Source: Mesorhizobium sp. NFR06 (GTDB lineage: Bacteria > Pseudomonadota > Alphaproteobacteria > Rhizobiales > Rhizobiaceae). From it: a stretch of DNA of 64,000 nt. A program made the translations under genes and the position numbers. Of the stretch, positions 2,044 through 18,527 are shown piece after piece; position 1 is the first letter of the stretch, and each line of letters opens with the position of its first letter. The notes under the pieces are model-generated. The model made no database searches and was not told the origin of the DNA. It worked only from the letters and a program-made list of their open reading frames with translations. The stretch spans positions 1 to 64,000 of the forward strand of contig NZ_FOVT01000018.1 in assembly GCF_900115245.1 (NCBI RefSeq), read 5' to 3'.

Positions 2044-2171
2044 TTGTCTCAAGCCCCCGATACCGGCTCGCCGCGGCCTGCGATCAGGCCGCGAGCGAAG
2101 TCAGGTAAGACAACCACAGATTTGTGGCTTAGGCAAGAACATTACGGGAACATAGGTAATTGCGAGTCTCG

Positions 2172-3122
2172 TTACGGCGCGGCAGTCGAACCTTGCCCGG
2201 GCAGCGGCGCCTTCGACAGCATCCTGTCCAAGCTTCGTAGGTGCGGCTTTGTAAATCGCCGGCGGTAGTAGTAAATTGCCAGGGCGGAAGACCAGTATTT
2301 TCTTCTCAGCCCTAGAAGACCGAGTATCATCTTCCGCCTGCGGGCGGATTTTAAGACCAAAGTCCCCCCAGGAATATTCAATCCCGACATGATTCTGTAG
2401 AAATTGAAAATATCTGCAAAAGGCACGCGCTTGTAGCGCCAGGGCTTGGCCGATCCCGCATAGTGGATCACCTTGGGAGGCCGCCGTTCGATCTGCATAT
2501 ACCGCTCTGAAAAGAAATTCCATTCCCTGTCCAGGAAGAGAACTCGTCCGCGCACCACCGTATTCAAGGCCGTCTGGTCGAGGTATCGCGAATTGGCGGT
2601 TTGCCGAACTTTTGCAAAGATCCTGTCCGCAATGCCGTCCCTGCGCCAGGCGGCGAGGTTCATCGTAAGAACGCCGGAATTGATGTATTCATTCCGGGAC
2701 ATTCCGACGTCATCGAGTTCCTCCTGCTCGACGAAGCCGTCAATCACGCCGGCGACCAAGTTGTCGCCCAAGTCCGCCGACCAGAGGCCGCTGAGATCGG
2801 ACACCACCAGCGTATCTGCATCCATGTAGATGGCCTTGTCGCAATCAGGCAACATCTCCGGAATGAGTATCCGGGCATATGCGGCAGTCGTCAGCAGTTT
2901 GCCTCTTGTCGGCAGATCGGAAATCCGCTTGCCGTCTGCTTGGACAAGCTGACAATCAATTCCGTTTTGTTCACAAAAACGGCGAAGCTGTATCGCGGCG
3001 GCAGGCTCTATTCCTGCGTCTATAACGAAGAATGTCGCGTCGCGATTATGAATCCAGGCAGAAAAAATAAATAAAAAAAGGCCGGGTACAAAGTTATTGT
3101 CACTTGCAGTAACAATTATCAT
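2172..3122 (-). CDS. Glycosyltransferase family 8 (LgtC/GspA-like)
   Basis: About 316 residues from the chosen ATG. The N-terminus MIIVTASDNNF is the standard GT8 start, so the 25 codons available further upstream are probably not translated. The DxD metal and nucleotide-sugar motif is present as YMDADTLV, followed by INSGVLTMNL and the C-terminal HYAGSAKPW (HxxGxxKPW) signature of retaining GT8 galactosyl- and glucosyltransferases. It probably adds a hexose to a surface polysaccharide or LPS core at the cytoplasmic side of the membrane. The gene and its 5' flank are visibly AT-richer than the neighbours (a run of A near 3060-3080), suggesting transfer. Donor and acceptor cannot be told. Confidence 0.85.
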   Translation of the reverse strand: MIIVTASDNNFVPGLFLFIFSAWIHNRDATFFVIDAGIEPAAAIQLRRFCEQNGIDCQLVQADGKRISDLPTRGKLLTTAAYARILIPEMLPDCDKAIYMDADTLVVSDLSGLWSADLGDNLVAGVIDGFVEQEELDDVGMSRNEYINSGVLTMNLAAWRRDGIADRIFAKVRQTANSRYLDQTALNTVVRGRVLFLDREWNFFSERYMQIERRPPKVIHYAGSAKPWRYKRVPFADIFNFYRIMSGLNIPGGTLVLKSARRRKMILGLLGLRRKYWSSALAIYYYRRRFTKPHLRSLDRMLSKAPLPGQGSTAAP

Positions 3123-3336
3123 GAAATTCCGGGCCCCGGGAAAGCGGGTAGCTAAACCCGGCTGTGGTGGATGGATCGCGAGCACGCTCGCGGTCAAGGT
3201 AACACGTTAAAGTGTCCTCTAATGTATCATGCCCCGTCGATCCCTGGAAATGAAAATGGGCAGCGAAGTCGAACGCGCTCGCCGCCGACTGTCGCCATCA
3301 TATGAATGACAACGATGGTTCCGCCGCGATCGCGCG

Positions 3337-3937
3337 CTACCCCCGCTTGCCTTCCACGCAGTCCCAGAACAGGCTGGCGATGTCGGCGCCGCCGAAGCGC
3401 TGCACCTCGCGCACGCCGGTCGGCGAGGTGACGTTGATCTCGGTCATGTAGTCGCCAATGACGTCGATGCCGACGAGGATGAAGCCGCGTTCCCTGAGTG
3501 CCGGCCCGTCGATCAGGATGATGCGCTTGTCGCCCTTGCGCACGTCCTTGAGATAACGCTGCACGATATAGGGCTCGCGGAACAGCTGGCCGAACATTTC
3601 GAGGAGCGAGGCGAGGTTGCGGTCGGCCTCGTGCAGGTGGAAGATGCCGGCACCGCCATTGCCGTAGAGCGGCTTGACGATGATGTCGCCGAACTCCTTG
3701 CGGAAGGCGGCCACCTCCATCGGGTCCTTGGTGATCAGCGTCTCCGGCATCAGGTCCGGGAATTCCGTGACGAAGATCTTTTCCGGGCTGTTGCGCACCC
3801 AGGCCGGGTCGTTGACCACCAGCGTCTTCGGATGGATGCGCTCCAATATGTGCGTGGTGGTGATGTAGTTCATGTCGAAGGGCGGGTCTTGCCTCAGCAG
3901 CACCACGTCCATCTCGGAGAGGTCGGTGCGCCCCAAT
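3337..3937 (-). repeat. Left arm of gshB direct repeat (partner about 14206-14930)
   Basis: Both arms lie in the same orientation, about 10.9 kb apart. At the 3' side similarity begins around the stop codon (shared CGCTTGCCTTCCACGCAG). At the 5' side it ends abruptly after GGTCGGTGCGC. The left arm lacks the 126 bases corresponding to 14378-14503; the junction shows a short CCG microhomology. Same-orientation repeats of this length are substrates for homologous recombination that would loop out the intervening cyclase genes. Confidence 0.85.
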
Positions 3938-3948
3938 TGGAACGTCAC
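3337..3948 (-). pseudogene. gshB fragment: 3' copy of glutathione synthetase with internal 126-bp deletion
   Basis: This frame matches the intact gshB at 14206-15147 almost base for base, with only scattered substitutions. It covers only from about codon 73 ([11 protein letters not shown]) to the stop. The first seven or so codons (MTFQLG...) come from unrelated sequence. An in-frame deletion joins IILIDG directly to PALRERG near position 3507, removing 42 residues that include the conserved INRVPAE / RSNMHVGG part of the ATP-grasp active site. With the substrate-binding N-domain and that segment gone it cannot be a working synthetase, although the remaining frame is open. It is best read as one arm of a duplication bracketing the island to its right. 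Confidence 0.9.
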
Positions 3949-4168
3949 AGAAGGGTCAATCCTTCCGGTTTCGCGAACGCGAAGGTCGCGCCATATCCGG
4001 ACCTTGCAGTGATGCAGTGAATGTTAAGGCCCGATGCGGACGTTGCGCCCGAGTTCGAAGACTGACCGCGACTGTTCCGCTACCTTCGCATCGATAGCGC
4101 CAATGAGCGGCGTCTCACGTCCTACTCCTTGCCTCCATCGGGAGGGATCGTTGTGGACCAGGCCCTGC

Positions 4169-6688
4169 TTACCCGGGCTTGTGACAGACCCGATCCAGCG
4201 CGTCTCGAAGCGCGGTGGCGGCATCGCCACGCTCGTCAGGGGACATCAGCTCCGGTTCAAGTTCCAGCCTGAGGTGCGGCAGCTCGGTTCGAACAGCACG
4301 ACGAGCGGCCGCCAGATTGGCCTTCAGATCGATGACGCGGTAGGTGGCGACGGGATAGGCGATCCCCTTGACCTGGACGTGCCCCAGCTCCTCACAGTCG
4401 ATTGAGTCCTTCACTTGCGCAAACGTCTCGTAGGAAATGAGGATGGCCCCCGGCGGCGCCTCCTGCTCCAGGCGCGAGGCGAGATTCACGGCGCCGCCGA
4501 TTATCGTGTAGTCCATCCGGTCCTCGCTGCCGAAGTTGCCGACGGTGCAGTAGTCGGTATGGATGCCGATGCGACAGCGCAGTGGTGCCTCAATTCCGAT
4601 GTCGCGCCAGATTTCGGCAAGTTCGCTCATCCGCTTCTGCATGGTTAGAGCCATCTGCACGCAAGCCAGCGCGTCCTCCTTGACGCCGCGAGTCTCGGGA
4701 TCGCCAAAAAACATCAGGATCGCGTCGCCGACATATTTGTCGATCGTCGCGCCGTGATCCGAAGCAATTCTCGACATTTCCGTCAGATAGTGATTGAGGA
4801 GTTGGGTGAGATCCTCGGATTCCATCTTGTCAGTGGTCTCGGTAAAGCCGGCGATATCGGAGAAGCATATTGTCAGTTTCTTCCGCTGGCTGGCGATCCT
4901 GACCTCCTGGCGGCCGGTGAATATCGAGCGGTACACTTGGGGCGCCAGATACTTCGCCAGCTTGCTGGAAAGCGCCTCCAGAACCACGGATTTCTCGGCG
5001 AGGTTCTCCTCCCTTTGCTTCAGCTCGGTGATGTCCGAATAGACGGCGACCGTGCCGCCGGCGCTGATCCGCCGCTCGCTGATCATGACCCATCGCCCGT
5101 CGCCTCGCCGCTGCACCCAAGGTTCGCCAGGGTTGCGGTGCCGCGAGAGGCGCTCGGCGACCCACTCCTCGACCCGCCCCTCGGCGTCCCTGATGTAGCC
5201 GCGCTCGGCGGATCGGCGAATGATTTGCTCGAATGTCGTGCCGGGCGTCAGTTCGGTCTCCAGACCGGTGTAGAGCAATTCGCGGTAGCGGCTGTTGCTG
5301 AGGACGAGCCGGTCCTCCCAGTCGTACAGAGCGAATCCTTCGGAGATGCTTTCGATGGCATCGATGAGCCGCTGACGAGCTTCCGCAACGTCGCGCAGGT
5401 TCTTTTCCTCGACCTCGACAGCAGTATCCCGGAACAGTCTCAGCGCTTCGGCCATGCGCCCGATTTCGTCGCTGCCCGCGGCTGGCAGCGGCGCACGAAG
5501 GTTGCCCCCCGCAATCTCGAGCATGCCCTGGCTCACGGCCCCCAGTCGGGCGAGGAGGCTGCGGTCGACATAGAGCCAGACAACCAGAACCGAACTCAGG
5601 AGGCTGAGGAAGGCGGAGCCGAGCACAACCGCGGTGCCGTAGCGCTGGACGAGCGCGGCTTCGCGACCGGACGCAGCGATCTCCTGGTCTGCCGTGGCGA
5701 CCAGGCGATCGACGCCAGCGGTGAGGTTGCGCGACAGTCGATTGTTCTCGGCCAGAAGCCTTTCGCCCTGTGCCAGGACAGCAAACTCGTCCCCCCGCGC
5801 CTTGGGGATGCTATCCTCGCCGTCGGTCAAACCTTTGAACTCGTCGACACGCTGCCGGAAGCGGGTCCGCAACTTTTCGTCGATCTCCATGGAAACCTTT
5901 TCAAGAGCAGTGAGCGAACGGCGTAGCGGAAAAAGCATCAGCGCCAGGTCGCCCGGCGTCGGCGCGTTCGCGATCTTCACCAGCGCGTCGTTGACCGCCG
6001 AGATCTCCAGCTGCGCCTTCTGCTGAGGGATGTAGGCCGCAATCGCCTGGACCAGGTCGGCCATCGCCGCTGCGCGTCGATCGGGCGACAGCGACGTGTC
6101 GGCCGCGACCGCCTGCCATTGCGGGAGCCTGGAATCCATCACCAGGATGCCGGTGGCGACAAGGCGCTGGCTTCCGGTCGTCGTCGCGGCGAGGCGGTTC
6201 AGGAGCTCCTCCTTGCGGGCGACCACGTCGAGCCGGGCGACAACAAGGGAGTCGAGCTCCTTCAGGTTGCGCCTCAGAACGATCGCGGCTTCCTCGATCT
6301 CGGCCAAAGGCACCGTGCCCAAGGTGGCATCCCGGAGGTCCGTGCGCAGGGCCTCGAGGCGGGACATCTCGAGCGCGACGGCAGCCGAGACCTCGCTGTG
6401 CTGAGCCCTGCTTGTCGCTGCCAGCACCGATGGCGCGGCAGCAGCGACCCGTTCGGCCTGGCGCGACAGCTGGAGGGAAGCGAGCGCCGACGGCACGCGA
6501 TCCGTGGTAATTCGGTCGACGACATCGCCAACCTGGAGGAAGGCATAAAGCGCAGCAGCGGTCGCTAGCAACGCAAGGGCGCTGATCCCGAAAAAGGCGA
6601 GCAGCAGCCGGCCGCGTATGCCGAGGCGTTCAAGCATCTCGGCGAGTCGGGACAGTCCGGCCACACTGGTCTGCATCAGACTAGACAT
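4169..6688 (-). CDS. Membrane-bound class III adenylate/guanylate cyclase with HAMP and PAS domains
   Basis: 839 residues. A transmembrane helix lies at about 29-52, then a helical periplasmic domain of roughly 295 residues, a second helix at about 350-373, and a HAMP linker ([16 protein letters not shown]). A PAS-type domain at about 440-550 ([19 protein letters not shown]) is followed by a class III cyclase at about 595-785. The cyclase has both metal Asp residues ([20 protein letters not shown]), the adenine-selecting Lys and Asp (DKYVGD, MDYTIIG) and the Asn/Arg pair (VNLASRLE). It should therefore be catalytically competent, most likely making cAMP. The binding-protein gene ends only 22 bases upstream on the same strand, so the two are probably co-transcribed and the periplasmic domain may sense that protein. 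The exact ligand is unknown. Confidence 0.92.
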
Positions 6689-6710
6689 CTCAGCCGGCGA
6701 TCAGCGAACC

Positions 6711-7805
6711 CTATTCAACCGGCACGTACTCTCCGCCGCGCCAGACGTACCAAACCCAGCTCTGCTTCGTGAGGTCGCCCTTGTCGTCGAAATCGACCCG
6801 GCCGATGACGGTGTCGAATTCCTGTTCGTGCAGTGCCGCAATGACGGCCTTCGGCTCCAGCGAACCTGCCTTCGAGACTGCTTGGGCCCAGGCCTGGACG
6901 GCGCCGTAGCTCAACAGCGTGTAGCCCGCGGGCTCGAAGTTCTCGGCACGGAACTGTTCAACGACCGCGGCCGCTTCGGGGCTTCGCCTCGGGTCCGCCG
7001 GGAACGTGAAGAGGGTCCCCTCCGCCGCGGGGCCGGCGATCAGGGCAAATTCCTCGGTCGCCAAAGCATCTCCGGATATGAGCTGAACCTTGTAGCCCCT
7101 GTCGTGTGCGGCGCGAGCAATCAGCGCAACCTCGGCATGATACCCACCTACATACAAGGCGGAGACGCCGGCGGTCTGCAACGCAGCGACCTCGGCTGAA
7201 TAGTCATCCTTCCCGGGCGTGTAGGCGTCGTAAACGGCCTCAGTCACGCCCCGCTTGTTCAGCTGCTTCCTGGTCTCGTCGGCGAGACCCTTCCCATAGG
7301 TCGAGTTGTCGTGGAGGATCGCAATCTTCTTGCTGCCCCAATGATCGGCAAGGTAGTTGCCGGCGATGAAACCTTGCGCGTCATCGCGGCCAATGGTGCG
7401 AAAGACATTGGCACGGCCCTGTTCGGTCAGCTGCGGATTGGTCGAGCCTGGGGATATCTCGACGACGCCCGCCTCCTCGTACACTTTTGATGCGGGGATC
7501 GAGGCCCCGGAGCAATAATGCCCGACGACGAGCACGACCCCGTCAGCCACCAGCTTCTTGGCGGCCGCTACAGCTTGCTCGGGATCGCAGAAGTCGTCGA
7601 CCGAGATGAGCCTCACCTTCTGGCCAAGCACGCCGCCCGCCGTGTTGACGTCGGCCACGGCCATCTCCGCGCCGCGCTGTCCCTGCTCGCCGATCCAGGC
7701 GAGGCGTCCCGTCATCGCAGCCGAGACGCCGATCAGCACCTCCGCCCGCGCGGCGCTGAACATGGCCGCGAGAACTAAGATCGCTATGGCGATGATGCGG
7801 TGCAT
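6711..7805 (-). CDS. Periplasmic branched-chain amino acid-type ABC substrate-binding protein (orphan)
   Basis: 364 residues with a clear signal peptide (about residues 1-21, cleaved after AARA). The mature part is a LivK-type type I binding protein: IGVSAAMTGRLAWIGEQ, the GGVLGQKVRLISVDDFCDP segment, GHYCSGASIPASKVYEEAG, and IAILHDNSTYGKGLADE. No permease or ATPase gene is near it, which is unusual for a transport component. Instead it sits directly upstream of the membrane cyclase, so it may present a ligand to the cyclase's periplasmic domain rather than feed a transporter. The ligand could be an amino acid, amide or short organic acid and cannot be inferred from sequence alone. Confidence 0.9.
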   Translation of the reverse strand: MHRIIAIAILVLAAMFSAARAEVLIGVSAAMTGRLAWIGEQGQRGAEMAVADVNTAGGVLGQKVRLISVDDFCDPEQAVAAAKKLVADGVVLVVGHYCSGASIPASKVYEEAGVVEISPGSTNPQLTEQGRANVFRTIGRDDAQGFIAGNYLADHWGSKKIAILHDNSTYGKGLADETRKQLNKRGVTEAVYDAYTPGKDDYSAEVAALQTAGVSALYVGGYHAEVALIARAAHDRGYKVQLISGDALATEEFALIAGPAAEGTLFTFPADPRRSPEAAAVVEQFRAENFEPAGYTLLSYGAVQAWAQAVSKAGSLEPKAVIAALHEQEFDTVIGRVDFDDKGDLTKQSWVWYVWRGGEYVPVE

Positions 7806-8128
7806 GGGTGCATCCCTGTCGGTAGCTTACGCCAAACCCGTCAGAGCCGACAGCCCCTTGAGCAAGCGCGAGCACCCCGGCTGTGACCACAGTGCAATTG
7901 GCTAAGCGATCCTTCGCTTGAATGGCGCGGCATAACTTCGTTCGCTGGGGTCGGATTCGCGCGCCGAATCCAGACATTCCACTGGCCGGAGGGGAAGGTG
8001 CCGTTGGCTGCAGTCGACTGCGAACGGCTTGGAAATGACCGCCATAGGATCCAATACGCGCCTTTGCGACTAACTCGTTGTGCTGCGGCATAGCCGGTTA
8101 GGTCACCAGCCACGGGCGTTTGGCGACA
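7806..8128. other. Intergenic region, 323 bp, no gene recognised
   Basis: This lies between the stop of the large cyclase-WD40 gene and the start of the binding-protein gene, both on the minus strand. It should hold the promoter of the binding-protein/cyclase pair. Short open frames exist on both strands, but none has a credible start site or a recognisable domain. No terminator with a T-run is visible. Confidence 0.5.
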
Positions 8129-11100
8129 TCAACTTGGACAATCGCTAACGTCGCCTTCGACGGGAAGGAAGAAGCGAAGCCGTTCGCATGCGGTCAGTTC
8201 GCGTGGCACAGTTTGCTTCGCGAAATCGATGAGATCTTGGGGTGTCTGAAAAACCCGTATGACGCGAACGTCTTCTTCATAGGACACGATCACGATCCTC
8301 GTTCCATCTGAATTGAAGGCCGCGCGTGTCGGTGCCGGCCGCTTGTTCTCCTCCTTCGGACTGGCAAGCACTGCCATCTCGCGCCCCGCCCGCGCGGTCC
8401 AGAGCCGGGCCGTTCCGTCCTGAGTCGAGGCTGTCAGGACATAGAGACCGTTAGGACTGAATTGCGCGCTGGTCACTGCGCCGGTGTGCCCCCTGAGAAC
8501 GACCCTTTCCGTTCCGTCTGGGACGCTCCAGATTCTTACGGTGCCGTCGCGTGAGGCAGTCAGGAGTGACTGACCGTCCGGGCTGAACGCGACTTCGGTG
8601 AGCTGATCGCCATGACCTCTTAGGATCGCGACGGTGCTTCCGTCCTTGACCGACCAGATCCGCGCGGTGTGGTCGAGTGAGGCTGTAGCGACCAGTTTGC
8701 CGTCCGGACTGAATGCCGCCCCGGTGACTCGGCCCTCATGCCCGACCAGTTCCTTCAGTTCGGTCCCGTTCGTTTCCAACAGGTGCGCGGCGTTGTCGCT
8801 GGTCGCGGCGAGGACGAGATCGCCGTCCGGGTTGAAAACAACCTGCCTCCCACTTGTCTGGATAGTGGCGACTTCGGCGCCAGTTGCTGTGTTCCACAAC
8901 CGTGCCGTGCCGTCAGTCGAACTCGACGCCAGGATATCTCCTTTCGGACTGAACTGAACTTGAAGGAGCCCGAGAGGATATTGGAGGCGCGCGATCTCGC
9001 GTCTGCCCGCAACGTCCCAGATGAGAACTCGGCCCGAAAGGGATGCGGTTGCAACGCGACTTCCGTCAGGGCTGAACGTCGCACCGTTGACAATCTCGCC
9101 TGTGTCGAACTCGGCTATTTCATGGCCGGCTAAATCCCACAGGTGCCCTTTGGCGTCCCCGCCTCCGGTCAGAAGATGCACATTGTCAGGACTGAACACC
9201 GCAAAGGTCGGCGGATACTCGTTCATCAGATCGGTCGTGAGAACCCCGTCGACGTCCCAAAGGCGGGCGGTGCCATCGTGTGAAGCCGTGAGAAGAATAT
9301 TGCTGTCGACTGGATTGAACTCGAGGTGCTCGATCAAGGCACGATGGCCGGTGATGGTGGTGAACAGCGACGCTCGACCGACGTCCCAGATGCGTATTGG
9401 ACCGTTCATGGAAGCGGTGGCCAAAAGGCGATCGTTGGGGCTGAACGCGCTGTTCATTTCGACATCACGGTCGTCCCGATCGATGTCTTTCAGTTTCAAG
9501 TTGGGGGACTCTTGACCGAGAACGTCAAGCAAGAATCCCGACTTTCCGTCCCAGATTCGTGCGCTGCCATCGAGCGAGACCGTTGCAATCCGGCGGCCGT
9601 CGTGACTGAACGTTGCGCCGTGTAATTGGGTGTCGCTCTTGTGGCCAAGGAGCCTTGCGATTTCGGTTCCGTTCGATGGGTCCCAAAGCGCAGGGAAGTT
9701 GCCGTATGAAATATCCCCCCACGAGCCTACCAACAGCCGACTTCCGTCCGGGCTGAATGTGAGTGTGGATGCGTAAGTGTTAACGCGGCATTCACGGATC
9801 AGCGCGCCATCCGCGGCATTCCAGACGAAGACCTTCCGTTCTTGTGAGGTCACAAAGCTGCGACCATCCGGATTGAAGCCAGCCAATCCGTCTCCAGTGC
9901 TGGCTACGCTCAGGAGTTTCGTTCCCGTCCGGGCATCCCAGAGTGAGGCGTGACTGTTCTGCCCCGCCGTCAACACCCGGTCGCCGTTCGAATCGAACAC
10001 AGCCGTTGGATAATCGCCGACCGGCGCAAGCACAGCACGCTGCGCTCCAGAGTCGGCATCCCAGATGCGCGCGGTGCCGTCCCTTGCGGCCGTAATGACC
10101 CGGCGTCCGTCCGGACTGAATCCGGCTCTCTCCACGGGTCCCTGGTGGCCCTTCAAGTTTGCAATCTCGCTACCCTTCGCGACGTCCCAAATGCGTGCGG
10201 TCTTATCGTAGGACGCGGTGACAATGCGATCACCCGTCTGATTGAAGGCTGCCTGAGTCACCCCGGCGTCGTGTTTGAAGACCGCTGTTTGGTGGTGCAC
10301 CAGCAGAGCGTTGAAAAGTGCGGCCTCGGCTTCAAAGAGATATGGCCGCGCGGGCCCCGATCCACCCTTCGGCAGCGCTTCCAGCGCCAACAGGATCGCG
10401 GCCTCCGTATCACCGCTCGCCGCGGTCTGCTGCGAAAGAAACGAAATCGAAAGAGACTGATTGCGGAGCGCCTGATCGCGCGCCTCGAGGGCCTCCTTTT
10501 CGGCCGACCTCGCCTTGTCTGCGCTCTGCTCCGCCAACTCCGCTTGCCGCGTTGCTTCCTGTTGTGCTCTGAACCCGAAGAACGCGCCTGCGCCGGCCAT
10601 GAGAGCCAACGCCGTCGCAACGAGGGCCGCATAGCGCGTGCGCTGCGCGAGCCGGCTCGCCGCCGCGGCCGCAAGACTGCGGCGTTCGGCCTCACGCTCG
10701 AGGCGCTCGCGTCTTGCAGCTTCGGCCGCCTCGATCCATGCCCGCTCCGCTTGTCGGTCCTTCTCCTCCCTCTGTTTCTGGGCACGAGAAGACTCTTCGA
10801 TGTATTCGATGACATGATCGTCGACTTCTTCCCGTCTCGACTGCAGCAGTTCCTCGCCTTCGGCGAGACGCTTGCCGGATGGTAAGAGAAGTTCCTGGTT
10901 CCTGTTATCCGAATGCCAGCGATCGGCGTCAGCCATGAGCCGAGCCCGGGTCTCGAGGAAGCTTCTGTTTGAATTGACAATGTCGCTAGCGCGCGGCCAG
11001 CGGCCCAACAAAGCTTCGTGTGCCACGCGAACGAAGACGTGGCCTGCGGCATCCTCATCACTGACGAGGAGGCGAGCGGCGACCAACGCCTCAACGAGAG

Positions 11101-12691
11101 CCAATCGTTGAGGCGTGCCCGTGACTTCGGCGCGCAAGGCCGGACGTGCCGCAACAGTTTCATCGCCTGGGCGCACCGTGGTTAGGGCACGCAACACTAT
11201 CGGCAGCTCCTCCTGGATGTCCGGCGGGAGAGCGTCTACGACTTCGTCGGCGCGGCGCGCGATCGCCCCATCGAGGCCGCCAAGTGCCTGATATGCAGCA
11301 AAGGTGAGGATCCGGCGCTCCCGTCCGGTCTCGTACAGAGCGTCGAGCACAAATTCGAGAAGCGGCAAAGATCTGGGATCAGCAGCTGCCGCATCCTGCA
11401 GCACATCGTCGAGCCGTCCTCGATCAGGACTCTCCTCGAAGCGGAGCCCCGCGGCGCGGGGCGGCTCGCGGATAATCTGGGCGATCTCAGGGCCGGATGG
11501 CGGCAAGAGTTCGTAGCTGGCGAGCCCATCCTTCAGCCCCGAGAAGCCGGGGACTTCGCCGCAACGGTGAAAGAAATCCGATCGGATCGTCGCAATCACC
11601 CAAGCCAGTCCACTGCCGGCGAGTGCCGCGAGGAGCCGTACCAGCACTTCGCGCGATGCCGGCTTCTCCTCCGTCGTGAACAACTCCTCCATCTGATCGA
11701 CGGCAACTATCAGTCGCAGTTGCGTAGGGACCGAACCTGCGGACGCCGCGGCTTTGGCGTGGGCTTGCCGTATCAGCGCCAGAGCTCGATCGGGTGAACT
11801 CCAACAGAGTTGAGCCAGCGCTGCCGGTTCGCAAGCCAGCTCAGGGAGGGCGCCTTGGTGAAGCAGCCCCGCGGCCAGTGATGTGACCGGATCAGGACCC
11901 TCCGATGGGCGGACCAGACAGCGGCGCCAAAAATTGATGCCAGCCACTGCGCCAGGCCGAGTGATGGAAGGCAGCAGCCCTGCTCGCAGGAGAGAGGACT
12001 TGCCCGAGCCGCTCATACCATAGATGAGCAGGAATGCCTTGCCATTGGCAGCTTGCTGCTCCAGGCGTTCTATGCAGGCAGCAGTCGCCCGAGCTCGTCC
12101 GAAGAAGAGTTCAGCGTCTTCGAACTCGAAGGGGTTGAGACCTCGAAAAGGTGACGTGACCTGCTCCTCCGAAGGGAGAGGCACGCGGTAAGCGTGCACA
12201 GGCCGGGCGATGTTCTTCACCCTGTGCTCGCCAAGATCGACGAATTCGAGCGAGAGCCGATCGCGGGCCTGTGCGTAGACCGCTTCCGAAATGCACATTC
12301 CACCCGGATGTGACAGCGCTTCCAGACGGGCGGCGACGTTCACACCGTCGCCCATGAGATTGTCACCCTCGACGACAACATCGCCGAGATTGATGCCGAT
12401 GCGAAAGCGTAGCCGGCTCGCCTCGGAGAGTTCGGCATTTTGTTTGTCGACTTCGAATTGGATTTCGGTGGCGCACCGAACCGCTTCGACTGGGCTCGCG
12501 AACTCGGCGACGACGCTGTCCCCAGCGCTGCCGAACACTCGGCCCTCATGTTGCTCGATCACCCGGTCAATGACCTGACGATGCGCCCGAAGTGTCGCAA
12601 TCGCCCCTTCCTCGCCTCTGCCAGTCAGACGGCTGTAGCCAACTGCGTCGGCGGCGAGGACAGTGGCCAATCTGCGGTGAACGCGATCCAA
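8129..12691 (-). CDS. Giant class III cyclase - nSTAND NTPase - transmembrane - WD40 protein
   Basis: About 1520 residues. Residues 1-170 are a class III nucleotide cyclase with metal Asp residues (LAADAVGYS, GSAGDSVVAEF) and the Asn/Arg pair (VNVAARLEA). From about 185 a STAND NTPase follows, starting PFRGLNPFEFEDAELFFGR, with Walker A GMSGSGKSS and Walker B LIVAVDQMEELF. One membrane helix at about 684-705 (ALVATALALMAGAGAFF) is followed by a charged coiled coil. The C-terminal half holds about 15-16 WD40 units (typical FSPDGxxxxTASxDGTARIWD), enough for two beta-propellers. The start is the TTG giving LDRVHRRLATVLAADAVGYS, because a GGGAGGG Shine-Dalgarno lies 9 bases upstream; an ATG 42 codons earlier has no such support. 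It probably couples propeller-sensed signals to cAMP. Partners are unknown. Confidence 0.9.
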   Translation of the reverse strand: MDRVHRRLATVLAADAVGYSRLTGRGEEGAIATLRAHRQVIDRVIEQHEGRVFGSAGDSVVAEFASPVEAVRCATEIQFEVDKQNAELSEASRLRFRIGINLGDVVVEGDNLMGDGVNVAARLEALSHPGGMCISEAVYAQARDRLSLEFVDLGEHRVKNIARPVHAYRVPLPSEEQVTSPFRGLNPFEFEDAELFFGRARATAACIERLEQQAANGKAFLLIYGMSGSGKSSLLRAGLLPSITRPGAVAGINFWRRCLVRPSEGPDPVTSLAAGLLHQGALPELACEPAALAQLCWSSPDRALALIRQAHAKAAASAGSVPTQLRLIVAVDQMEELFTTEEKPASREVLVRLLAALAGSGLAWVIATIRSDFFHRCGEVPGFSGLKDGLASYELLPPSGPEIAQIIREPPRAAGLRFEESPDRGRLDDVLQDAAAADPRSLPLLEFVLDALYETGRERRILTFAAYQALGGLDGAIARRADEVVDALPPDIQEELPIVLRALTTVRPGDETVAARPALRAEVTGTPQRLALVEALVAARLLVSDEDAAGHVFVRVAHEALLGRWPRASDIVNSNRSFLETRARLMADADRWHSDNRNQELLLPSGKRLAEGEELLQSRREEVDDHVIEYIEESSRAQKQREEKDRQAERAWIEAAEAARRERLEREAERRSLAAAAASRLAQRTRYAALVATALALMAGAGAFFGFRAQQEATRQAELAEQSADKARSAEKEALEARDQALRNQSLSISFLSQQTAASGDTEAAILLALEALPKGGSGPARPYLFEAEAALFNALLVHHQTAVFKHDAGVTQAAFNQTGDRIVTASYDKTARIWDVAKGSEIANLKGHQGPVERAGFSPDGRRVITAARDGTARIWDADSGAQRAVLAPVGDYPTAVFDSNGDRVLTAGQNSHASLWDARTGTKLLSVASTGDGLAGFNPDGRSFVTSQERKVFVWNAADGALIRECRVNTYASTLTFSPDGSRLLVGSWGDISYGNFPALWDPSNGTEIARLLGHKSDTQLHGATFSHDGRRIATVSLDGSARIWDGKSGFLLDVLGQESPNLKLKDIDRDDRDVEMNSAFSPNDRLLATASMNGPIRIWDVGRASLFTTITGHRALIEHLEFNPVDSNILLTASHDGTARLWDVDGVLTTDLMNEYPPTFAVFSPDNVHLLTGGGDAKGHLWDLAGHEIAEFDTGEIVNGATFSPDGSRVATASLSGRVLIWDVAGRREIARLQYPLGLLQVQFSPKGDILASSSTDGTARLWNTATGAEVATIQTSGRQVVFNPDGDLVLAATSDNAAHLLETNGTELKELVGHEGRVTGAAFSPDGKLVATASLDHTARIWSVKDGSTVAILRGHGDQLTEVAFSPDGQSLLTASRDGTVRIWSVPDGTERVVLRGHTGAVTSAQFSPNGLYVLTASTQDGTARLWTARAGREMAVLASPKEENKRPAPTRAAFNSDGTRIVIVSYEEDVRVIRVFQTPQDLIDFAKQTVPRELTACERLRFFLPVEGDVSDCPS

Positions 12692-13362
12692 GGCGCTACC
12701 CTCCCGCGATTGCGGAACATAGTAAAGGAAATGGCGCCTAGTGGGGAGAGGCACCGAATTGACCGCAAGGGGTCCGCTTCTGGTGTGCAACCCGACATTC
12801 CGCTTGTGTGGCGGCAATGACCGAGTTGGGTTGGACTATACCGTTTGAGCCGGCGACCGGAATGGACAGCTAGCGCCAGCTCCCGACATTGCCGGCCAGC
12901 CTCGCAAGTGTCGCGATACGATCCGTTGACGACCCTGGTCGCCGCAGACTTCAGCGTCAAAACAAGCTTCGGAACCTGACCTTCAGCACAGCAATTCGGG
13001 AGTGCTACCGAGTGAAATTCATTCGCCACATTGGCTCCGGTCACATCGAAGCTGCCCAAGTTTCAAGACGTTGGGCACCGTTAGAACGCGCATCTGAAAG
13101 ATCCTGTCGGTCTCGCCCCTGTGGTCGTCCCATGGCACGGATGAGGACGACCACTGTTTGCCGCGGCGCCCGAGACGGCTCGCGATACGCGTGAGCCGCA
13201 GATGCTTTTCCGTGCTATGATGGGCTTGCAATCTTGACCTCGGCAATATGGCAGAGGCCGAACGCTGTTTGCTCTGGCGCGGGAGTTGCGCCCAGCACGG
13301 GCCCAACCCGGAATGTGGTGTTGCTGCCTTTTGCCGACTGAGCTTGGGCGAGGAGTTTGTCC
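12692..13362. other. Intergenic region, 671 bp, divergent promoters, no gene recognised
   Basis: The giant cyclase (minus) and the peroxiredoxin (plus) are transcribed away from this stretch, so both promoters should lie here. Open frames in it lack ribosome-binding sites and resemble no family I know; several are antisense to the neighbours. I saw no tRNA-like fold, tandem repeat or insertion sequence. Confidence 0.5.
12701..12707 (-). promoter_or_regulatory. Shine-Dalgarno deciding the TTG start of the giant cyclase
   Basis: On the minus strand GGGAGGG precedes GCC TTG GAT CGC with normal spacing. The residues following the TTG match the usual N-terminus of rhizobial cyclases of this class, while the 42 codons upstream encode nothing recognisable. 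Confidence 0.65.
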
Positions 13363-14007
13363 ATGTCCATGTGTAGTGTTGACCGCCAACTGCAGCCGGG
13401 CGACCCAGCGCCCAATATAGTGCTCGATGCTATCTCGCGCGAAGGCAAGATTGCGCTCGATGATTTTCGAGGCCGTAGCCCGTTGTTGATCGGTTTGTTT
13501 CGCGGTCTGCACTGTCCGTTCTGCCGCCGTCACGTCGCGACCATGGCGCAACTCAATCCGGCTCTGCATGAGAAAGGCGTCGAATGCCTGGCAGTGGTCA
13601 ATACGCCGGTCGAACGGGCAAGGCTCTATTTCCGCTACCACCCGATGCCCCACCTTCTCGCCGCGTCCGACCCGGAGCGGACCTCGCATCGTGCTTTCGG
13701 CTTGCGCGAGGTCGGGATGGACACGGTCACGGCGATACGGATTGACCTTCCGGGCGAGTTGCCAGAGCCTATGGACGTGATGGCAATGAACGAGTTTCTC
13801 AACAAGAAGGAAGGATATGAGATTACGGAAGCCGATCAGCAGATGATGGCTTCCGGCCAGGGGCAGCTTGTCGGTCAGTTCCTAATCGACCGGGAGGGCA
13901 TCGTGCGCTGGAGCTTCACTGAAGTTCTGGAGGTTGGTCTCCAAACGTTCAGGGCGCCGAAACCCGAGGAACTGATATCGGTAGCGTCCCAGGTCGCACA
14001 TCAATAG
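13363..14007 (+). CDS. Peroxiredoxin-like AhpC/TSA (redoxin) family protein
   Basis: About 214 residues with a thioredoxin fold: LQPGDPAPNIVLDAISREGK, the strand SPLLIGLFRGLHCPFCRRH, and ATMAQLNPALHEKGVECLAVV. A CxxC pair (HCPFC) replaces the single peroxidatic Cys of classical 2-Cys peroxiredoxins, so it may act as a peroxidase or a disulfide oxidoreductase in the cytosol; no signal peptide is present. The start is the ATG seven bases after AGGAG; a TTG two codons earlier and an ATG two codons later are possible. It is the only plus-strand gene inside the gshB-bracketed island. A link to glutathione metabolism is tempting but unproven. Confidence 0.85.
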   Translation: MSMCSVDRQLQPGDPAPNIVLDAISREGKIALDDFRGRSPLLIGLFRGLHCPFCRRHVATMAQLNPALHEKGVECLAVVNTPVERARLYFRYHPMPHLLAASDPERTSHRAFGLREVGMDTVTAIRIDLPGELPEPMDVMAMNEFLNKKEGYEITEADQQMMASGQGQLVGQFLIDREGIVRWSFTEVLEVGLQTFRAPKPEELISVASQVAHQ

Positions 14008-14205
14008 GCTGCCGAGAAATTCGCTCGACGACCGCGCCCTGTAACGACCTGGTCCAGAACGTATTGGAACGAATCCGTCACGAAGCCGATTTCGACGCCA
14101 TTCGTGCGGCTTCTTCGTTCGCTTGGCTTGTGACGCACAGCTGCCCCGGACGGGCGCCGATCTGCATCAGAATCTGAAGGTCCTGCGAAGCAGACGGGGA
14201 GTTGA

Positions 14206-14930
14206 TTACCCTCGCTTGCCTTCCACGCAGTCCCAGAACAGGCTGGCGATGTTGGCGCCGCCGAAGCGCTGCACCTCGCGCACGCCGGTCGGCGAGGTGA
14301 CATTGATCTCGGTCATGTAGTCGCCAATGACGTCGATGCCGACGAGGATGAAGCCGCGTTCCCTCAGCGCCGGCCCGATGCGGGCGCAGATCTCGCGTTC
14401 GCGCTCGGTCAGCTCGGTCTTCTCGGCGCGGCCGCCGACATGCATGTTGGAGCGGGAATCGTGCTCGGCCGGCACGCGGTTGATGGCGCCCACCGGCTCG
14501 CCGTCGATCAGGATGATGCGCTTGTCGCCCTTGCGCACGTCCTTGAGATAACGCTGCACGATATAGGGCTCGCGGAACAGCTGGCCGAACATTTCGAGCA
14601 GCGAGGCGAGGTTGCGGTCGGCCTCGTGCAGGTGGAAGATGCCGGCACCGCCATTGCCGTAGAGCGGCTTGACGATGATGTCGCCGAACTCCTTGCGGAA
14701 GGTGGCCACTTCCATCGGGTCCTTGGTGATCAGCGTCTCCGGCATCAGGTCCGGGAATTCCGTAACGAAGATCTTCTCGGGGCTGTTGCGCACCCAGGCC
14801 GGGTCGTTGACCACCAGTGTCTTCGGATGGATGCGCTCCAATATGTGGGTGGTGGTGATGTAGTTCATGTCGAAGGGCGGGTCTTGCCTGAGCAGCACTA
14901 CGTCCATCTCGGAGAGGTCGGTGCGCACCT
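14206..14930 (-). repeat. Right arm of gshB direct repeat
   Basis: This is the part of intact gshB that is duplicated at 3337-3937, from the stop back to about codon 73. It retains the 126 bases (about 14378-14503) that the left arm has lost. Confidence 0.85.
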
Positions 14931-15147
14931 TCTCGCCCAGCCAATAGTGGTTGCCCTTCTCGTCGCGCACCTGCATCTCCTCGACGCGCGCGAACACCTT
15001 GCCGTCACGCATCGACAGCCGGTCGGGCGTGTAGTGAAAAAGCTTGTGGCCGCGCCGCTGCGCCTCCAGCGACAGCGCGAAGCTCGTGTCGCCGGCGATC
15101 GACACGGTGGAGACATGGTCCATCTGGACAGCGATATTCAACGGCAT
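14206..15147 (-). CDS. gshB: Glutathione synthetase (intact)
   Basis: 313 residues, full family length. It joins glycine to gamma-glutamylcysteine using ATP in the cytosol, the last step of glutathione synthesis. The N-domain starts [20 protein letters not shown]. The ATP-grasp part shows [15 protein letters not shown], the conserved [18 protein letters not shown] segment, and the C-terminal [14 protein letters not shown] with metal-binding Glu and Asn. A damaged partial copy lies 10.9 kb downstream, and this copy retains everything missing there. No gshA is in view. The gene is separated by about 80 bases from the gtrA/gtrB pair upstream on the same strand. Confidence 0.97.
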
Positions 15148-15226
15148 TTTGCGCTCCGGCGATCTTGGTCGCCCGATATAAGGAAATCGGCGGCGTCTGC
15201 CAATCGTGCTTGCTTGGTGCAGAAGC

Positions 15227-15604
15227 TTAGCGGTCGAAGACTAGGCGCGAATAGCCGAAGAACGAGAGCGTCATGGCGATGATCGAGGCCAAGGCGAGCG
15301 CCGCCAGCGGCGGCAAGGCCGGCAATGCGAAGAGCAGGGCGCAGTAGACCATGTAGTTGACGATGCTGGTGGCGACGCCGACGCCGCCATAGCGCGCGCC
15401 TTCCTGCGCGATGCCCCGGCTCGACGGCGAGAAGGTCATACGGCGGTTGACCTGCCAGGTGACGCAGAGTGCGAAGCCGATCGACAGCGCGCGCGCGCCC
15501 AGGGGCCCGAGCGGCGTGGCGGAAAGCAGCAGCCAGAGCGCCGCCGCGTCGGCGACGAAGCCGATGCCGCCGGCGAGGGCGAAGCGGACGAGGCGGCCCA
15601 TCAT
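15227..15604 (-). CDS. GtrA family membrane protein
   Basis: 125 residues with four predicted membrane helices, the normal GtrA layout: [39 protein letters not shown], an [19 protein letters not shown] helix, and a last helix ending [11 protein letters not shown]. GtrA proteins are thought to flip polyprenyl-phosphate-linked sugars across the inner membrane. Its ATG overlaps the stop of the GT2 gene just upstream on the same strand, so the two are translationally coupled and probably act on the same lipid-linked sugar. It completes a Gtr-like set with the divergent large membrane protein beyond. Confidence 0.87.
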
Positions 15605-16605
15605 GCCGCCCGCGGGGCCTTGCCCGGCTCGCTCTTCGGCAAGGCCTGCCCGGATACAACGCGCTCGGCGCGGCCGGAGGAAATCGACAGATAGAAGATG
15701 CGCTTCTGCTCGGCCCGGCCGCGCGAGACGGAATCAAGGATCAGCCCCGTCATCATCGACAGCATCGCCAACAGCAGCATACCGATCGACAGCACCCAGG
15801 TCGGCATGCGCGGCACCAGCCCGGTCTCGGCAAATTCGACCAGCACCGGGATCATCAGTCCGATGCTGGCCGCCAGGAAGAACAGCGCGAAGGTGCCGAA
15901 GAAGCGCAGCGGCTGCGTCTCCTTCACCAGCATGGCGAACATCCACAGGATCCTGGCGCCGTCGCGGAAGGTCGACAGTTTCGACGACGAGCCTTCCGGG
16001 CGGCGGCCGTAATCGAGCGCCATCTCGCTCACCGGCAGCTTGAGCTGCGAGGCATGCACCGACATCTCCGTCTCGATCTCGAAGCCCCCGGATACGGCCG
16101 GGAAGCTCTTGACGAAGCGGCGGGAAAAGACCCGGTAACCGGAGAAGATATCGGTGAAATCGGTCCCGAACAGGCCCTTGTAGAGCCGGTTGAAGACGCG
16201 GTTGCCGAAGGCATGGCCGTTGCGGCCGGCATCGTCGGTCACGCCGCGCCTTGTGCCCACCACCATGTCGGAGCGTTCGGTTTGCAGAACGTTGATCAGC
16301 TGCGGCGCATCTTCGGGCGCATAGGTGCCGTCGCCGTCGGCCATCACATAGATGTCCGCGTCGATGTCGGCGAACATGCGGCGCACCACATTGCCCTTGC
16401 CCTGGCGCGGCTCGCGCACGACGATGGCGCCGGCGGCGCGGGCTTTCAGCGCCGTCAGGTCCTTGGAATTGTTGTCGTAGACATAGATCGCGGCCGAAGG
16501 CAGGGTCTCGCGAAACCGTCGCACGACCTCGCCGATCGTCAGTTCCTCGTTGTAGCAAGGCAGGAGCACGGCGATGACCGGCTCGTGGCGGACTGCATGC
16601 GGCAT
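15601..16605 (-). CDS. GtrB-like family 2 glycosyltransferase (polyprenyl-phosphate sugar synthase)
   Basis: 334 residues. The N-terminal GT-A domain has IAVLLPCYNEELTIGEVVRRF, the YVYDNNSKD nucleotide contact and the DxD motif VMADGDGTY. The C-terminal part has two hydrophobic helices (FGTFALFFLAASIGLMIP and LSIGMLLLAMLSMMTGLIL) that anchor it to the inner membrane, as in GtrB/DPM1-like enzymes. It likely transfers a sugar from a nucleotide donor to undecaprenyl phosphate. It is the first gene of a two-gene unit with gtrA. The sugar cannot be predicted. Confidence 0.9.
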   Translation of the reverse strand: MPHAVRHEPVIAVLLPCYNEELTIGEVVRRFRETLPSAAIYVYDNNSKDLTALKARAAGAIVVREPRQGKGNVVRRMFADIDADIYVMADGDGTYAPEDAPQLINVLQTERSDMVVGTRRGVTDDAGRNGHAFGNRVFNRLYKGLFGTDFTDIFSGYRVFSRRFVKSFPAVSGGFEIETEMSVHASQLKLPVSEMALDYGRRPEGSSSKLSTFRDGARILWMFAMLVKETQPLRFFGTFALFFLAASIGLMIPVLVEFAETGLVPRMPTWVLSIGMLLLAMLSMMTGLILDSVSRGRAEQKRIFYLSISSGRAERVVSGQALPKSEPGKAPRAA

Positions 16606-16730
16606 GTCTGTCTCCGGGCGCGCGACCAGCCTCCGGCAGTCGCTGCGCCGGCCCGTCGGGCTGCTTTACTATTTATTGAAGCCGTTAAGGCTAGGTTTAA
16701 ACCGATCCTCTCCCTTCAAAGGCTACGGCA

Positions 16731-18527
16731 ATGGGCAAAGCTGAAAGCGGCGCCGCCACCTGGAAGTCCGATCTCATGCTGGCGCTGCTGGCTGCCTCGC
16801 TCGCGTTCGCGCTCGATGCGTGGGCCGGCTTCGGCCAACTGACCGATGCAGGCGGCGACAGCGACAATCTGCTGCGCCTCGTCGAGGTCCGCGACCTGCT
16901 CGCCGGCCAGGGCTGGTTCGACCTGCACCAGTACCGGATGGGGCTGGAAGGCGGCTTCGTCATGCACTGGTCGAGGCTGGTCGACGCGCCGATCGCCGCC
17001 ATCGTCCTTGCCGCCTCCGCGCTCACCGGCAGCAGGCCGCTTGCCGAGGATGTGGCGCAGGTGCTGTGGCCGGCGCTGCTGCTCTGGTCGACCTTGTTCT
17101 TCACGGCCCGCGCCGCGCGCTCTTTCGGCGGCGGCGCCGCGGTGCTGCCTGCCATCCTGATCGGTGGCGCCGGCTATTATTTCGTCGGCATCTACGATCC
17201 CGGCGCGCTCGATCACCATAACGTCCAGCTGATGCTCACCATGGCGAGCCTCGCTTTGCTGCTCGAGGCGCCGGCGCCGCGCGGGGCAGCGCTGTTTTCC
17301 GGCCTCTGCGCCGCGCTGACGCTCGCCGTCGGTATGGAAACCGTGCCCTACGTCGCCACCATCGGCGTGTGCGTGTCGCTGCTGTTCGTTGTCGATGCGG
17401 GCAGCGAGCGGGCGATCGCCCGCGATTTCGGCCTCGGCTTCGCCGGCATCGCGGCGCTTGTCTTCGTCACCACCATCCCGCCTTCCGCCTGGGGCGTGGC
17501 GCAATGCGATGCCTTTTCGGTGGCGCAGTTCGCAGTCGCGGCAATTGCCGGCACCGGCCTGGCGGCGATCGCCTCGATCGAGCCCGCCGCCCGCCGCTGG
17601 CAGCGCAGGCTGGCGTCGCTCGCCGCGCTCGGCGTCGCTCTCGCCGTCGTCGTGGTGGCGCTGTTCCCGCAATGCCTCGCCGCGCCTTATGCCAATCTCG
17701 ACCCGCGCCTCAAGGAATTGTGGCTCGACCATATCGACGAGGCCCAGTCGCTGTTCACGCTGCTTGTCCGCGATCCGGCGCGCGTCGCGGCGCGCTACGC
17801 GACGCCGCTGGTCGCGATCATCCTGATGGCGCAGCACTTCCGTCGCGGCGGCTGGCGCCGGCAGGACAGCCTCGTCGCCGCGCTGCTCGTCGTCGCCTTC
17901 CTGGTCGGCGCCTGGCAGGTGCGCGGCACCACCTTCTCGATCGCTTTCGCGGTCATTCCGCTGTCGGCATGGATCGCCAAATGGCGGGCGCGGGCCGAAA
18001 CCAGCTCTTCGCCCGGCGTGGCGCTGCGGCTGGCGGCCGTCTGGCTGGTTTCGATCAACCCGGTCTGGACCGGTGTTGCCGCCGCCGCCTCGGTGGCGTT
18101 TGAAAAGGGCACGGCCGTCGGCGACGGCGGTGCCACGGACAAGACATGCGAGAAAAAGGCCACCTTTGCGCCGCTTGCCGGCATGACCGGCACCACCGTG
18201 CTGGCGATCTCCAATCTCGGCGCGCCGGTCCTCGCCTATAGCGGCCACCGCGTCTTCGCCGGTCCTTATCACCGTAATGTCGCCGGCAATCTCCTGGCCC
18301 TCGACGCCTTTCTCGGCTCGGCCGATGACGCGCGCGCAATCGTCGAGTCGCATCGTGTCGGCCTCGTCGCCATCTGCCCCGGCAACGGCGAGAACCGGAT
18401 CCTGACTCAGAAGGCGCCGCAGGGCTTCCTTGCCGGCTTGCTGCGCGGCAGCGTCCCGGACTGGCTCGAGCCGGTCAGCGGGAAGGGCAGCCCGATCGAG
18501 CTCTACCGCGTCAGGCAAGCCGGCTAA
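16731..18527 (+). CDS. Large polytopic membrane protein, GT-C glycosyltransferase-like
   Basis: 598 residues with about eleven hydrophobic segments and a C-terminal soluble tail of about 150 residues. The first luminal loop holds acidic residues (DAGGDSDNLLRLVEVRDL), followed by HWSRLVDAP and a DPGALDHHNVQ motif. This arrangement is seen in GT-C enzymes that take sugars from polyprenyl phosphate. I cannot assign it to a named family with certainty. It is divergent from gtrB/gtrA, sharing a 125-bp promoter region, which fits a three-part system: GtrB loads the sugar, GtrA flips it, and this protein transfers it outside the membrane. Acceptor unknown; LPS or another surface glycan is likely. 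Confidence 0.75.
   Translation: MGKAESGAATWKSDLMLALLAASLAFALDAWAGFGQLTDAGGDSDNLLRLVEVRDLLAGQGWFDLHQYRMGLEGGFVMHWSRLVDAPIAAIVLAASALTGSRPLAEDVAQVLWPALLLWSTLFFTARAARSFGGGAAVLPAILIGGAGYYFVGIYDPGALDHHNVQLMLTMASLALLLEAPAPRGAALFSGLCAALTLAVGMETVPYVATIGVCVSLLFVVDAGSERAIARDFGLGFAGIAALVFVTTIPPSAWGVAQCDAFSVAQFAVAAIAGTGLAAIASIEPAARRWQRRLASLAALGVALAVVVVALFPQCLAAPYANLDPRLKELWLDHIDEAQSLFTLLVRDPARVAARYATPLVAIILMAQHFRRGGWRRQDSLVAALLVVAFLVGAWQVRGTTFSIAFAVIPLSAWIAKWRARAETSSSPGVALRLAAVWLVSINPVWTGVAAAASVAFEKGTAVGDGGATDKTCEKKATFAPLAGMTGTTVLAISNLGAPVLAYSGHRVFAGPYHRNVAGNLLALDAFLGSADDARAIVESHRVGLVAICPGNGENRILTQKAPQGFLAGLLRGSVPDWLEPVSGKGSPIELYRVRQAG

What the first reader, a model, noticed from the sequence alone, without database searches (positions are those of the whole stretch)
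8129..12691. Cyclase fused to a STAND NTPase, a membrane helix and two WD40 propellers
One chain joins a signal-making domain (cAMP or cGMP) to a switch NTPase used in immunity-like and stress sensing, then to about 15-16 WD40 units that could detect a partner. The catalytic residues of both enzyme domains are present. This could be a self-contained detector that raises a cyclic nucleotide alarm, possibly in phage or stress defence.
Basis: partly seen in the sequence, partly recalled or inferred. Interest (0 to 1): 0.72.

Follow-up and report, generated by a model that had tools for sequence, protein, structure and literature searches.

The report
Membrane STAND receptor with cyclase output
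A rhizobial bacterium carries one very large protein that looks like a receptor built on an immunity-type switch and wired to make a cyclic-nucleotide signal, and close relatives of the same protein have let the signal enzyme decay and carry a DNA-binding domain instead, which suggests that such receptors can exchange their outputs.

Summary
The ORF at 8129-12691 (minus strand, 1520 aa) is a class III cyclase + nSTAND1 NTPase + one predicted membrane helix + 15-16 WD40 units, in a Mesorhizobium genome with 28 cyclase matches and no other nSTAND1 protein over the cut-off. The architecture is patchy: 30 of 146 Mesorhizobium genomes, but only 9 hold the form with an intact cyclase. Copies at different sites share little beyond the gene, and this one fills a variable slot beside another cyclase, not a defence island.

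The main new result is a sister lineage (20 intact copies). All four metal and transition-state residues of the cyclase are gone in all 20, Walker A is invariant, an N-terminal winged-helix DNA-binding domain has been added, and a divergent DUF1194 (vWA-like) gene lies upstream in every locus examined. In the window's lineage the cyclase is the most constrained domain; in the sister lineage it is the least. Of 26 cyclase-less nSTAND1 relatives, 22 carry a DUF4062-like N-terminal motif.

Best reading: a transmembrane STAND receptor with an exchangeable output, here a cyclic nucleotide. A phage-defence role is possible but has almost no direct support. WD40 location, ligand and product are inferred.

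The parts
8129..12691 (-). whole gene, 1520 aa, TTG start
   Evidence: full-length homologues
12179..12691 (-). class III nucleotidyl cyclase domain, aa 1-171 (D15, D58, N118, R122; Gly54 at the Lys position)
10895..12151 (-). nSTAND1 NTPase, aa 181-599
11993..12019 (-). Walker A GMSGSGKSS, aa 225-233; K231 and S232 invariant in 33 of 33
11678..11698 (-). Walker B region DQMEELF, aa 332-338
10463..10819 (-). predicted continuous helix aa 625-743 running through the membrane segment
   Evidence: pLDDT about 81-91 up to aa 660, then falling to 44-75
10562..10627 (-). single predicted transmembrane helix, about aa 689-710; net charge +4 in the 20 residues before it, -1 after it
8252..10291 (-). 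15-16 WD40 units, aa about 801-1480 (two propellers inferred)
12699..12705 (-). ribosome-binding site GGGAGGG
   Evidence: read
12698..12831 (-). upstream stretch shared (82-84%) with three clade A copies at another site; likely part of the gene's own promoter region
8009..8128 (-). downstream stretch, about 120 bases, shared (72-77%) with four clade A copies at other sites; it ends close to the site boundary at 7991
7992..13177 (.). stretch holding the gene, absent at this site in 11 relatives in which the site can be seen; similarity ends at 7991-7995 in 8 of them

Best explanation
It is a one-gene transmembrane STAND receptor. The tandem WD40 propellers are the sensor. A single helix crosses the inner membrane with the N-terminus inside, which would put the propellers on the periplasmic side (inferred). 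Ligand or partner binding is passed through the long helix to the nSTAND1 NTPase, which switches and oligomerises (inferred from the STAND class and from Apaf-1) and brings the N-terminal cyclase domains together into the dimer that class III cyclases need. The cell then sees a pulse of cyclic nucleotide, read by general cNMP-binding regulators rather than by a dedicated effector. The chassis has an exchangeable output. In a sister lineage of the same genus the cyclase has lost its catalytic residues and a winged-helix DNA-binding domain sits in front, facing a DUF1194 gene. Shown: architecture, residues, constraint, swap, distribution. Inferred: topology, ligand, oligomerisation, product, downstream path.
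For: Domains and motifs. Catalytic quartet kept in 13 of 13 rows of clade A plus two outgroups; N118/R122 have the spacing of CyaC N491/R495, whose double mutant was silent (PMC10463352 passage). In clade A the cyclase is the most constrained of five segments, omega 0.090 against 0.144 for STAND and 0.24 for WD40; in clade B it is 0.381 while STAND stays 0.164. Clade B: Trans_reg_C E 2.2e-14 and cyclase 20.7 bits, under the cut-off, in the one row tested; divergent DUF1194 gene in 23 of 23 loci; conserved intergenic block in the 20 intact loci. Membrane segment with positive side inwards. Predicted helix through it. 28 cyclase and 10 cNMP-binding matches in the genome. Relatives with other N-terminal domains in front of nSTAND1.
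Against: Topology rests on hydropathy and charge only, and the helix model is weak there (pLDDT 57-69 over aa 681-710). The N-terminal model is middling (mean pLDDT 73, pTM 0.48), and its match list gives ORC/Cdc6 AAA+ folds long before plant NLRs. The WD40 part shows few variable sites, so nothing points to a fast-changing partner. No ligand is known. Gly54 replaces the usual Lys, so the product is open. The output could be that of one cyclase among 28 with little effect of its own. Most copies in the genus are the dead-cyclase form.
Confidence: 0.55

Rival explanations
1. A lone antiphage receptor: the WD40 part recognises a phage product, the STAND part assembles, and the cyclase raises a cyclic-nucleotide alarm that slows or kills the cell.
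For: Patchy, and copies at different sites share only the gene with short flanks. 22 of 26 cyclase-less nSTAND1 relatives have a DUF4062-like motif, and DUF4062 proteins are reported as antiphage NADases (PMC13174449). One copy (L144) lies 2.1-4.6 kb from PDC-M21B, PDC-M21A and pAgo matches. Tandem propellers resemble those of Apaf-1 among many others.
Against: No defence gene found around the window gene. The mad3, mad8 and PycC matches at other clade A loci that were traced are ordinary ABC ATPases and cyclases. No effector gene beside it. The sister lineage has a DNA-binding domain. Little WD40 variability. WD40 would lie outside the cytoplasm if the topology is right.
Confidence: 0.2
2. 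An Apaf-1-like layout: the hydrophobic helix only anchors the protein, the WD40 part stays in the cytoplasm and folds back on the NTPase as an inhibitor, and an internal signal releases it.
For: Apaf-1 chains are among the WD40 model matches (3shf rank 10, 3sfz rank 18). WD40 proteins are mostly cytoplasmic (recalled).
Against: One segment with hydropathy 1.9-2.7 in 33 of 33 rows, with more positive charge before it than after it, implies that the two ends lie on opposite sides. In clade B the partner gene starts with a signal-peptide-like stretch by reading.
Confidence: 0.2
3. The cyclase domain is only a dimerisation module here too, and the window protein makes no nucleotide.
For: Clade B kept a catalytically broken cyclase domain under weak constraint (omega 0.381). 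The base-selecting Lys is missing here.
Against: All four metal and transition-state residues are kept in 13 of 13 rows, and the domain has the lowest omega of the protein in clade A. Two other cyclases of this genome also have Gly there.
Confidence: 0.05

Closest known systems
nSTAND1 receptors (PF20703; clade named in PMC8195603, passage)
   Same: nSTAND1 domain; a hydrophobic segment (1.5 or more) within 30 residues after it in 21 of 26 relatives; WD40 in 2 of 7 tested and a PQQ-type propeller match in a third
   Different: 22 of 26 cyclase-less relatives have a DUF4062-like N-terminal motif. Many of these loci are cut off downstream, so their C-termini are incompletely seen
DUF4062 STAND proteins TEP1, NWD1, NWD2, and the Swarozyc DUF4062 system (PMC13174449, passages)
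   Different: output here is a cyclase; no defence shown
Apaf-1
   Same: N-terminal output, STAND NTPase, two WD40 propellers (passage in PMC13174449; fold match)
   Different: membrane helix, cyclase, bacterial nSTAND1 clade
Rhizobial cyclases (S. meliloti CHASE2 cyclases and CyaB, PMC13001267; CyaC, PMC10463352; passages)
   Same: class III cyclases in a genome with a very large set (28 in S. meliloti, 28 matches here)
   Different: those passages describe CHASE2, heme-binding membrane or sensorless forms; no STAND or WD40 part
Pycsar cyclases (PycC)
   Same: same catalytic fold; PADLOC PycC match E 6.9e-11
   Different: no PycTM or PycTIR gene found beside it
CadC/ToxR-type membrane winged-helix regulators (recalled)
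   Same: clade B: OmpR-type winged helix tied to a sensor by one membrane helix
   Different: clade B has a dead cyclase and a STAND NTPase in between

Membership tests
Class III nucleotidyl cyclase | two metal Asp and the Asn/Arg transition-state pair | tested here: met
   D15, D58, N118, R122; PDB 3mr7 E 3.5e-41, model Z 14.5, rmsd 3.3, 143 aligned
Class III nucleotidyl cyclase | canonical Lys for purine selection | tested here: not met
   Gly54; Lys there in 19 of 26 aligned cyclases of this genome (2 of the 28 were not aligned), Gly in 3 including this one. The family as a whole does not require it
Class III nucleotidyl cyclase | makes cyclic nucleotide | not testable with these tools
   needs an assay
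STAND NTPase, nSTAND1 clade | nSTAND1 profile over its cut-off, with Walker A and B | tested here: met
   E 3.3e-91; K231, S232, D332 and E335 invariant in 33 of 33
STAND NTPase, nSTAND1 clade | nucleotide-driven oligomerisation | not testable with these tools
   inferred from class
Antiviral STAND (Avs) and defence islands | defence-gene context | tested here: inconclusive
   not found in the window; a defence-type cluster at 1 of 10 clade A loci; 8 of 33 matched PADLOC families were not shown
Antiviral STAND (Avs) and defence islands | protection against phage | not testable with these tools
   needs phage challenge
Pycsar | adjacent cyclic-pyrimidine effector, PycTM or PycTIR (definition: PMC11224242, passage) | tested here: not met
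   the nearest genes are a LivK-like binding protein and a peroxiredoxin-like protein
Pycsar | pyrimidine-selecting pocket residues | not tested
   no structure named as PycC was listed up to E 10, so no alignment was made
Apaf-1-like tandem-propeller STAND | two WD40 propellers after the NTPase | tested here: inconclusive
   15-16 units, AF2 model mean pLDDT 81 but pTM 0.52; the split into two propellers is inferred from the number of units

The most novel reading that the evidence does not exclude
An NLR-like chassis has been turned from an effector switch into a transmembrane receptor whose output can be exchanged. nSTAND1 relatives elsewhere carry a NADase-like DUF4062 domain in front of the NTPase and a membrane helix behind it; Mesorhizobium clade A carries a second-messenger cyclase; clade B has let the cyclase die and uses a DNA-binding domain to control a secreted vWA-like partner gene. 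This would be a natural series linking immune-type receptors, second-messenger signalling and one-component gene control.
Probability: 0.4. Interest if true: 0.78.

Novelty: new variant of a known kind. Interest (0 to 1): 0.58.

Why it matters
STAND proteins are mostly studied as immune and death switches. This family offers a natural experiment: the same NTPase and propellers with an intact cyclase in one lineage, and with a dead cyclase plus a DNA-binding domain in its sister. It makes the question of how far STAND outputs are exchangeable directly testable in one genus, with a published S. meliloti strain that lacks all 28 of its own cyclases as a possible host (PMC13001267, passage).

Tried and rejected
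Operon with the downstream genes: rejected. No LivK match and no TorS-type cyclase beyond cyclase-domain cross-matches was found in the 34 homologue loci. The pair occurs without this gene at this site in 11 relatives; in a twelfth, L218, the contig ends before the site. Against this: in G461 a TorS-type cyclase orthologue lies about 14 kb from the clade A copy on one contig.

Defence island: not found in the window. For clade A, 102 of 132 listed neighbour ORFs (of 90 aa or more) were scanned; the 30 dropped were mostly short or orthologues of ones kept. Of 33 matched families 25 were shown. Traced: pAgo, PDC-M21A and PDC-M21B to L144; mad3, mad8 and AriA to ABC ATPases, PycC to cyclases. Not traced: mad1 (2 members), PDC-M21C, and the fourth members of mad3 and mad8. 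L145 gave nothing.

Hypervariable WD40 sensor: not seen. A DGR was not looked for.

Conserved small divergent ORF upstream of clade A: shared only within subgroups, looks spurious.

RNA families in 1-20000 and tRNAs in the window: none.

Ubiquitin-chain matches of the NTPase part: no stretch passed on its own; taken as chance.

DUF1194 genes of the own genome: three; by reading the ORF lists none has a STAND gene beside it; one faces a BTAD-type regulator.

In some searches only 3-4 candidates per genome were scored at strict thresholds (1e-55 to 1e-70), so weak fusions may be missed.

Full report
What is there. The minus-strand ORF 8129-12817 is open. The product of 1520 aa matches nSTAND1 at E 3.3e-91 and WD40 at 2e-91, and Guanylate_cyc at 41.2 bits, over its cut-off of 21.9. 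Reading the repeats gives 15 clear WD units and a partial last one. An AlphaFold2 model of aa 745-1520 (33 sequences, mean pLDDT 81, pTM 0.52) is three helices followed mostly by strands. Its best PDB match is a repetitive propeller, 2ymu; Apaf-1 comes at ranks 10 and 18 among many WD40 proteins. The model of aa 1-744 is weaker (pLDDT 73, pTM 0.48) and has one long helix from 625 to 743. The cyclase part matches 3mr7 (Z 14.5, rmsd 3.3, 143 aligned); the NTPase part matches ORC/Cdc6 AAA+ chains (best 1w5s, Z 14.1, rmsd 11.0, 253 aligned).

Membrane helix. A hydrophobic segment at about aa 689-710 has a counterpart in all 33 full-length rows (hydropathy 1.9-2.7). It is the top segment in 30 of them and second in three, among them the window protein. 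Net charge in the 20 residues before it is +2 to +5 in all 33 and lower after it; for the window protein it is +4 and -1.

Genome and distribution. The window lies in a 6.16 Mb genome with 28 cyclase matches, 11 nSTAND1 matches of which only this one is over the cut-off, and 10 cNMP-binding matches, 9 over the cut-off. Its genus is Mesorhizobium, judged from matching named contigs. The cyclase-like + nSTAND1 fusion is in 30 of 146 genomes of the genus, 34 copies. By clade, 9 genomes hold the intact-cyclase form (11 copies), 22 hold the dead-cyclase form (23 copies), and one holds both. Outside the genus it was rare. It was in 1 of 297 genomes sampled from the family, 2 of 297 from the order, 1 of 385 from the class and 1 of 378 from the phylum; in each, one hit is the window's own genome. 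The second in the order is G465. A MAG labelled Hyphomicrobiales (L062) also has it, among 18 loci. The samples overlap, thresholds were strict, and only 3-4 candidates per genome were scored.

Two lineages. Of the 34 copies 31 are full length. Three have broken frames in the WD40 part (assembly error not excluded) and were left out of alignment and tree; their upstream winged helix places them in clade B. With two outgroups there are 33 rows. The tree has the window's clade A (11 rows, 94/83) and clade B (20 rows, 100/100), with long-branch outgroups and a midpoint root. Walker A K231/S232 and D332/E335 are invariant in 33 of 33. D15, D58, N118 and R122 are kept in 13 of 13 rows of clade A plus outgroups and in none of the 20 clade B rows. 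Among 76 cyclase positions fixed in the 13 intact rows, 16 are absent from all of clade B. The four catalytic ones are all among them, against 12 of the other 72 (Fisher p 0.0014). The four were chosen for their known role, but after I had seen that they change. For STAND the figure is 5 of 154. The N/R pair has the spacing of CyaC N491/R495, whose double replacement was silent in a test strain (PMC10463352, passages).

Constraint. Median pairwise dN/dS in clade A is 0.090 for the cyclase, 0.144 for STAND and 0.24 for WD40; in clade B it is 0.381, 0.164 and 0.26-0.31 (NG86; pairs not independent; pairs with pS outside 0.1-0.6 dropped, 42-48 of 55 kept in A and 178-187 of 190 in B). The cyclase is the most constrained part where its residues are intact and the least constrained where they are lost. 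It is still under 1 in clade B, so it is probably kept as a structural link.

Output swap. Clade B frames run about 110 codons further upstream and encode an OmpR-type winged helix (Trans_reg_C E 2.2e-14 in L149, the one tested, whose cyclase scores 20.7, under the cut-off). This domain is constrained (omega 0.170). In clade A and the outgroups the frame runs only 10-82 codons further, with no such domain by reading. In 23 of 23 clade B loci, broken copies included, a divergent DUF1194 gene lies upstream (Pfam E 1.8e-68 for the one tested). By reading it has a signal-peptide-like start and the DxSxS part of the motif that PMC12282271 describes as a MIDAS site in DUF1194 proteins (passages). 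In the intergenic alignment of the 20 intact loci, 37 of 42 columns of one block are at least 95% identical (mean 0.963), against means of 0.684 and 0.788 in the non-coding stretches on either side. An equally conserved stretch (0.965) lies at the start of the winged-helix frame. I read the block as a candidate operator; this is not tested.

Chassis. Of 26 cyclase-less nSTAND1 relatives examined, 22 have a DUF4062-like N-terminal motif (a pattern search). One of the 22, L225, also has a protein kinase. Of the other four, L173 has a winged helix, one is truncated and two are different. Pfam DUF4062 hits on six N-terminal slices were all under the cut-off: E 1.8e-4 to 0.15 in five, none in one. 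A hydrophobic segment (1.5 or more) lies within 30 residues after the NTPase match in 21 of 26. WD40 was found in 2 of 7 tested, with a weaker propeller-type match in a third; several loci are cut off downstream. A 2026 preprint reports DUF4062 as a TIR-like NADase acting in antiphage defence (PMC13174449, abstract in listing and passages).

Place in the genome. Clade A copies at different sites share the gene with about 40-375 bases on either side and little more, while four loci sit at one common site. At the window's site, 12 relatives with the neighbouring LivK/TorS-type cyclase pair were compared; in one the contig ends before the site. In the other 11 the gene is absent at the site, and similarity ends at 7991-7995 in 8 of them. 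In 5 of the 11 the interval up to a peroxiredoxin-like gene holds a protein of 1104-1175 aa, and in 4 of these also one of 460-477 aa. In the one tested, L213, these are zinc-ribbon+cyclase+AAA+TPR and Fer2+cyclase+Rieske. The slot therefore seems to take cyclases. One other clade A copy (L144) lies 2.1-4.6 kb from PDC-M21B, PDC-M21A and pAgo matches.

Literature. Full-text searches for STAND or nSTAND1 with cyclase and/or WD40, and for Mesorhizobium with adenylate cyclase and WD40, found no paper describing this protein (listings, with passages read). PMC8195603 and PMC7159879 mention cyclase domains, some inactive, in other STAND or vWA conflict systems. The library lacks most subscription papers.

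Verdict. A real, patchy, probably mobile receptor-type protein: a new variant of nSTAND1 receptors with cyclase output, and a sister lineage in which that output has been lost and a DNA-binding domain gained. Defence is not excluded.

Noticed in passing
window 4169-7805 (-): A LivK-like periplasmic binding protein 22 bases upstream of a TorS-sensor-like + HAMP + PAS + class III cyclase protein: looks like a TorT/TorS-type pair with a cyclase in place of the kinase (TorT comparison recalled). Cyclase matches at E 1e-100 or better in 37 of 146 Mesorhizobium genomes.
   Followed up: partly
L213:5142-10358, same slot as window 7992-13177: In relatives the slot holds zinc-ribbon+cyclase+AAA+TPR and Fer2+cyclase+Rieske proteins; a variable cyclase slot.
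   Followed up: partly
L138:4633-14816: Two clade A copies side by side on one strand in one genome (about 82% and 75% identical to the window protein); recombination not tested.
   Followed up: no
intergenic of 20 clade B loci, e.g. L149 upstream of 7118: A 42-column block between the winged-helix STAND gene and DUF1194 with 37 columns at least 95% identical.
   Followed up: partly
L144:13342-15847: PDC-M21B, PDC-M21A and a 361-aa pAgo-like protein in a row.
   Followed up: no
N-termini of L223, L167, L065, L170, L226 and others: DUF4062-like domains in front of nSTAND1, with a GTEWEFE-type motif in 14 of 26, those tested all below Pfam's cut-off: possibly a large unlabelled set of NADase-type STAND proteins.
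   Followed up: partly
G000 contig 13, 63-78 kb: Four class III cyclase matches within 15 kb of the same genome.
   Followed up: no
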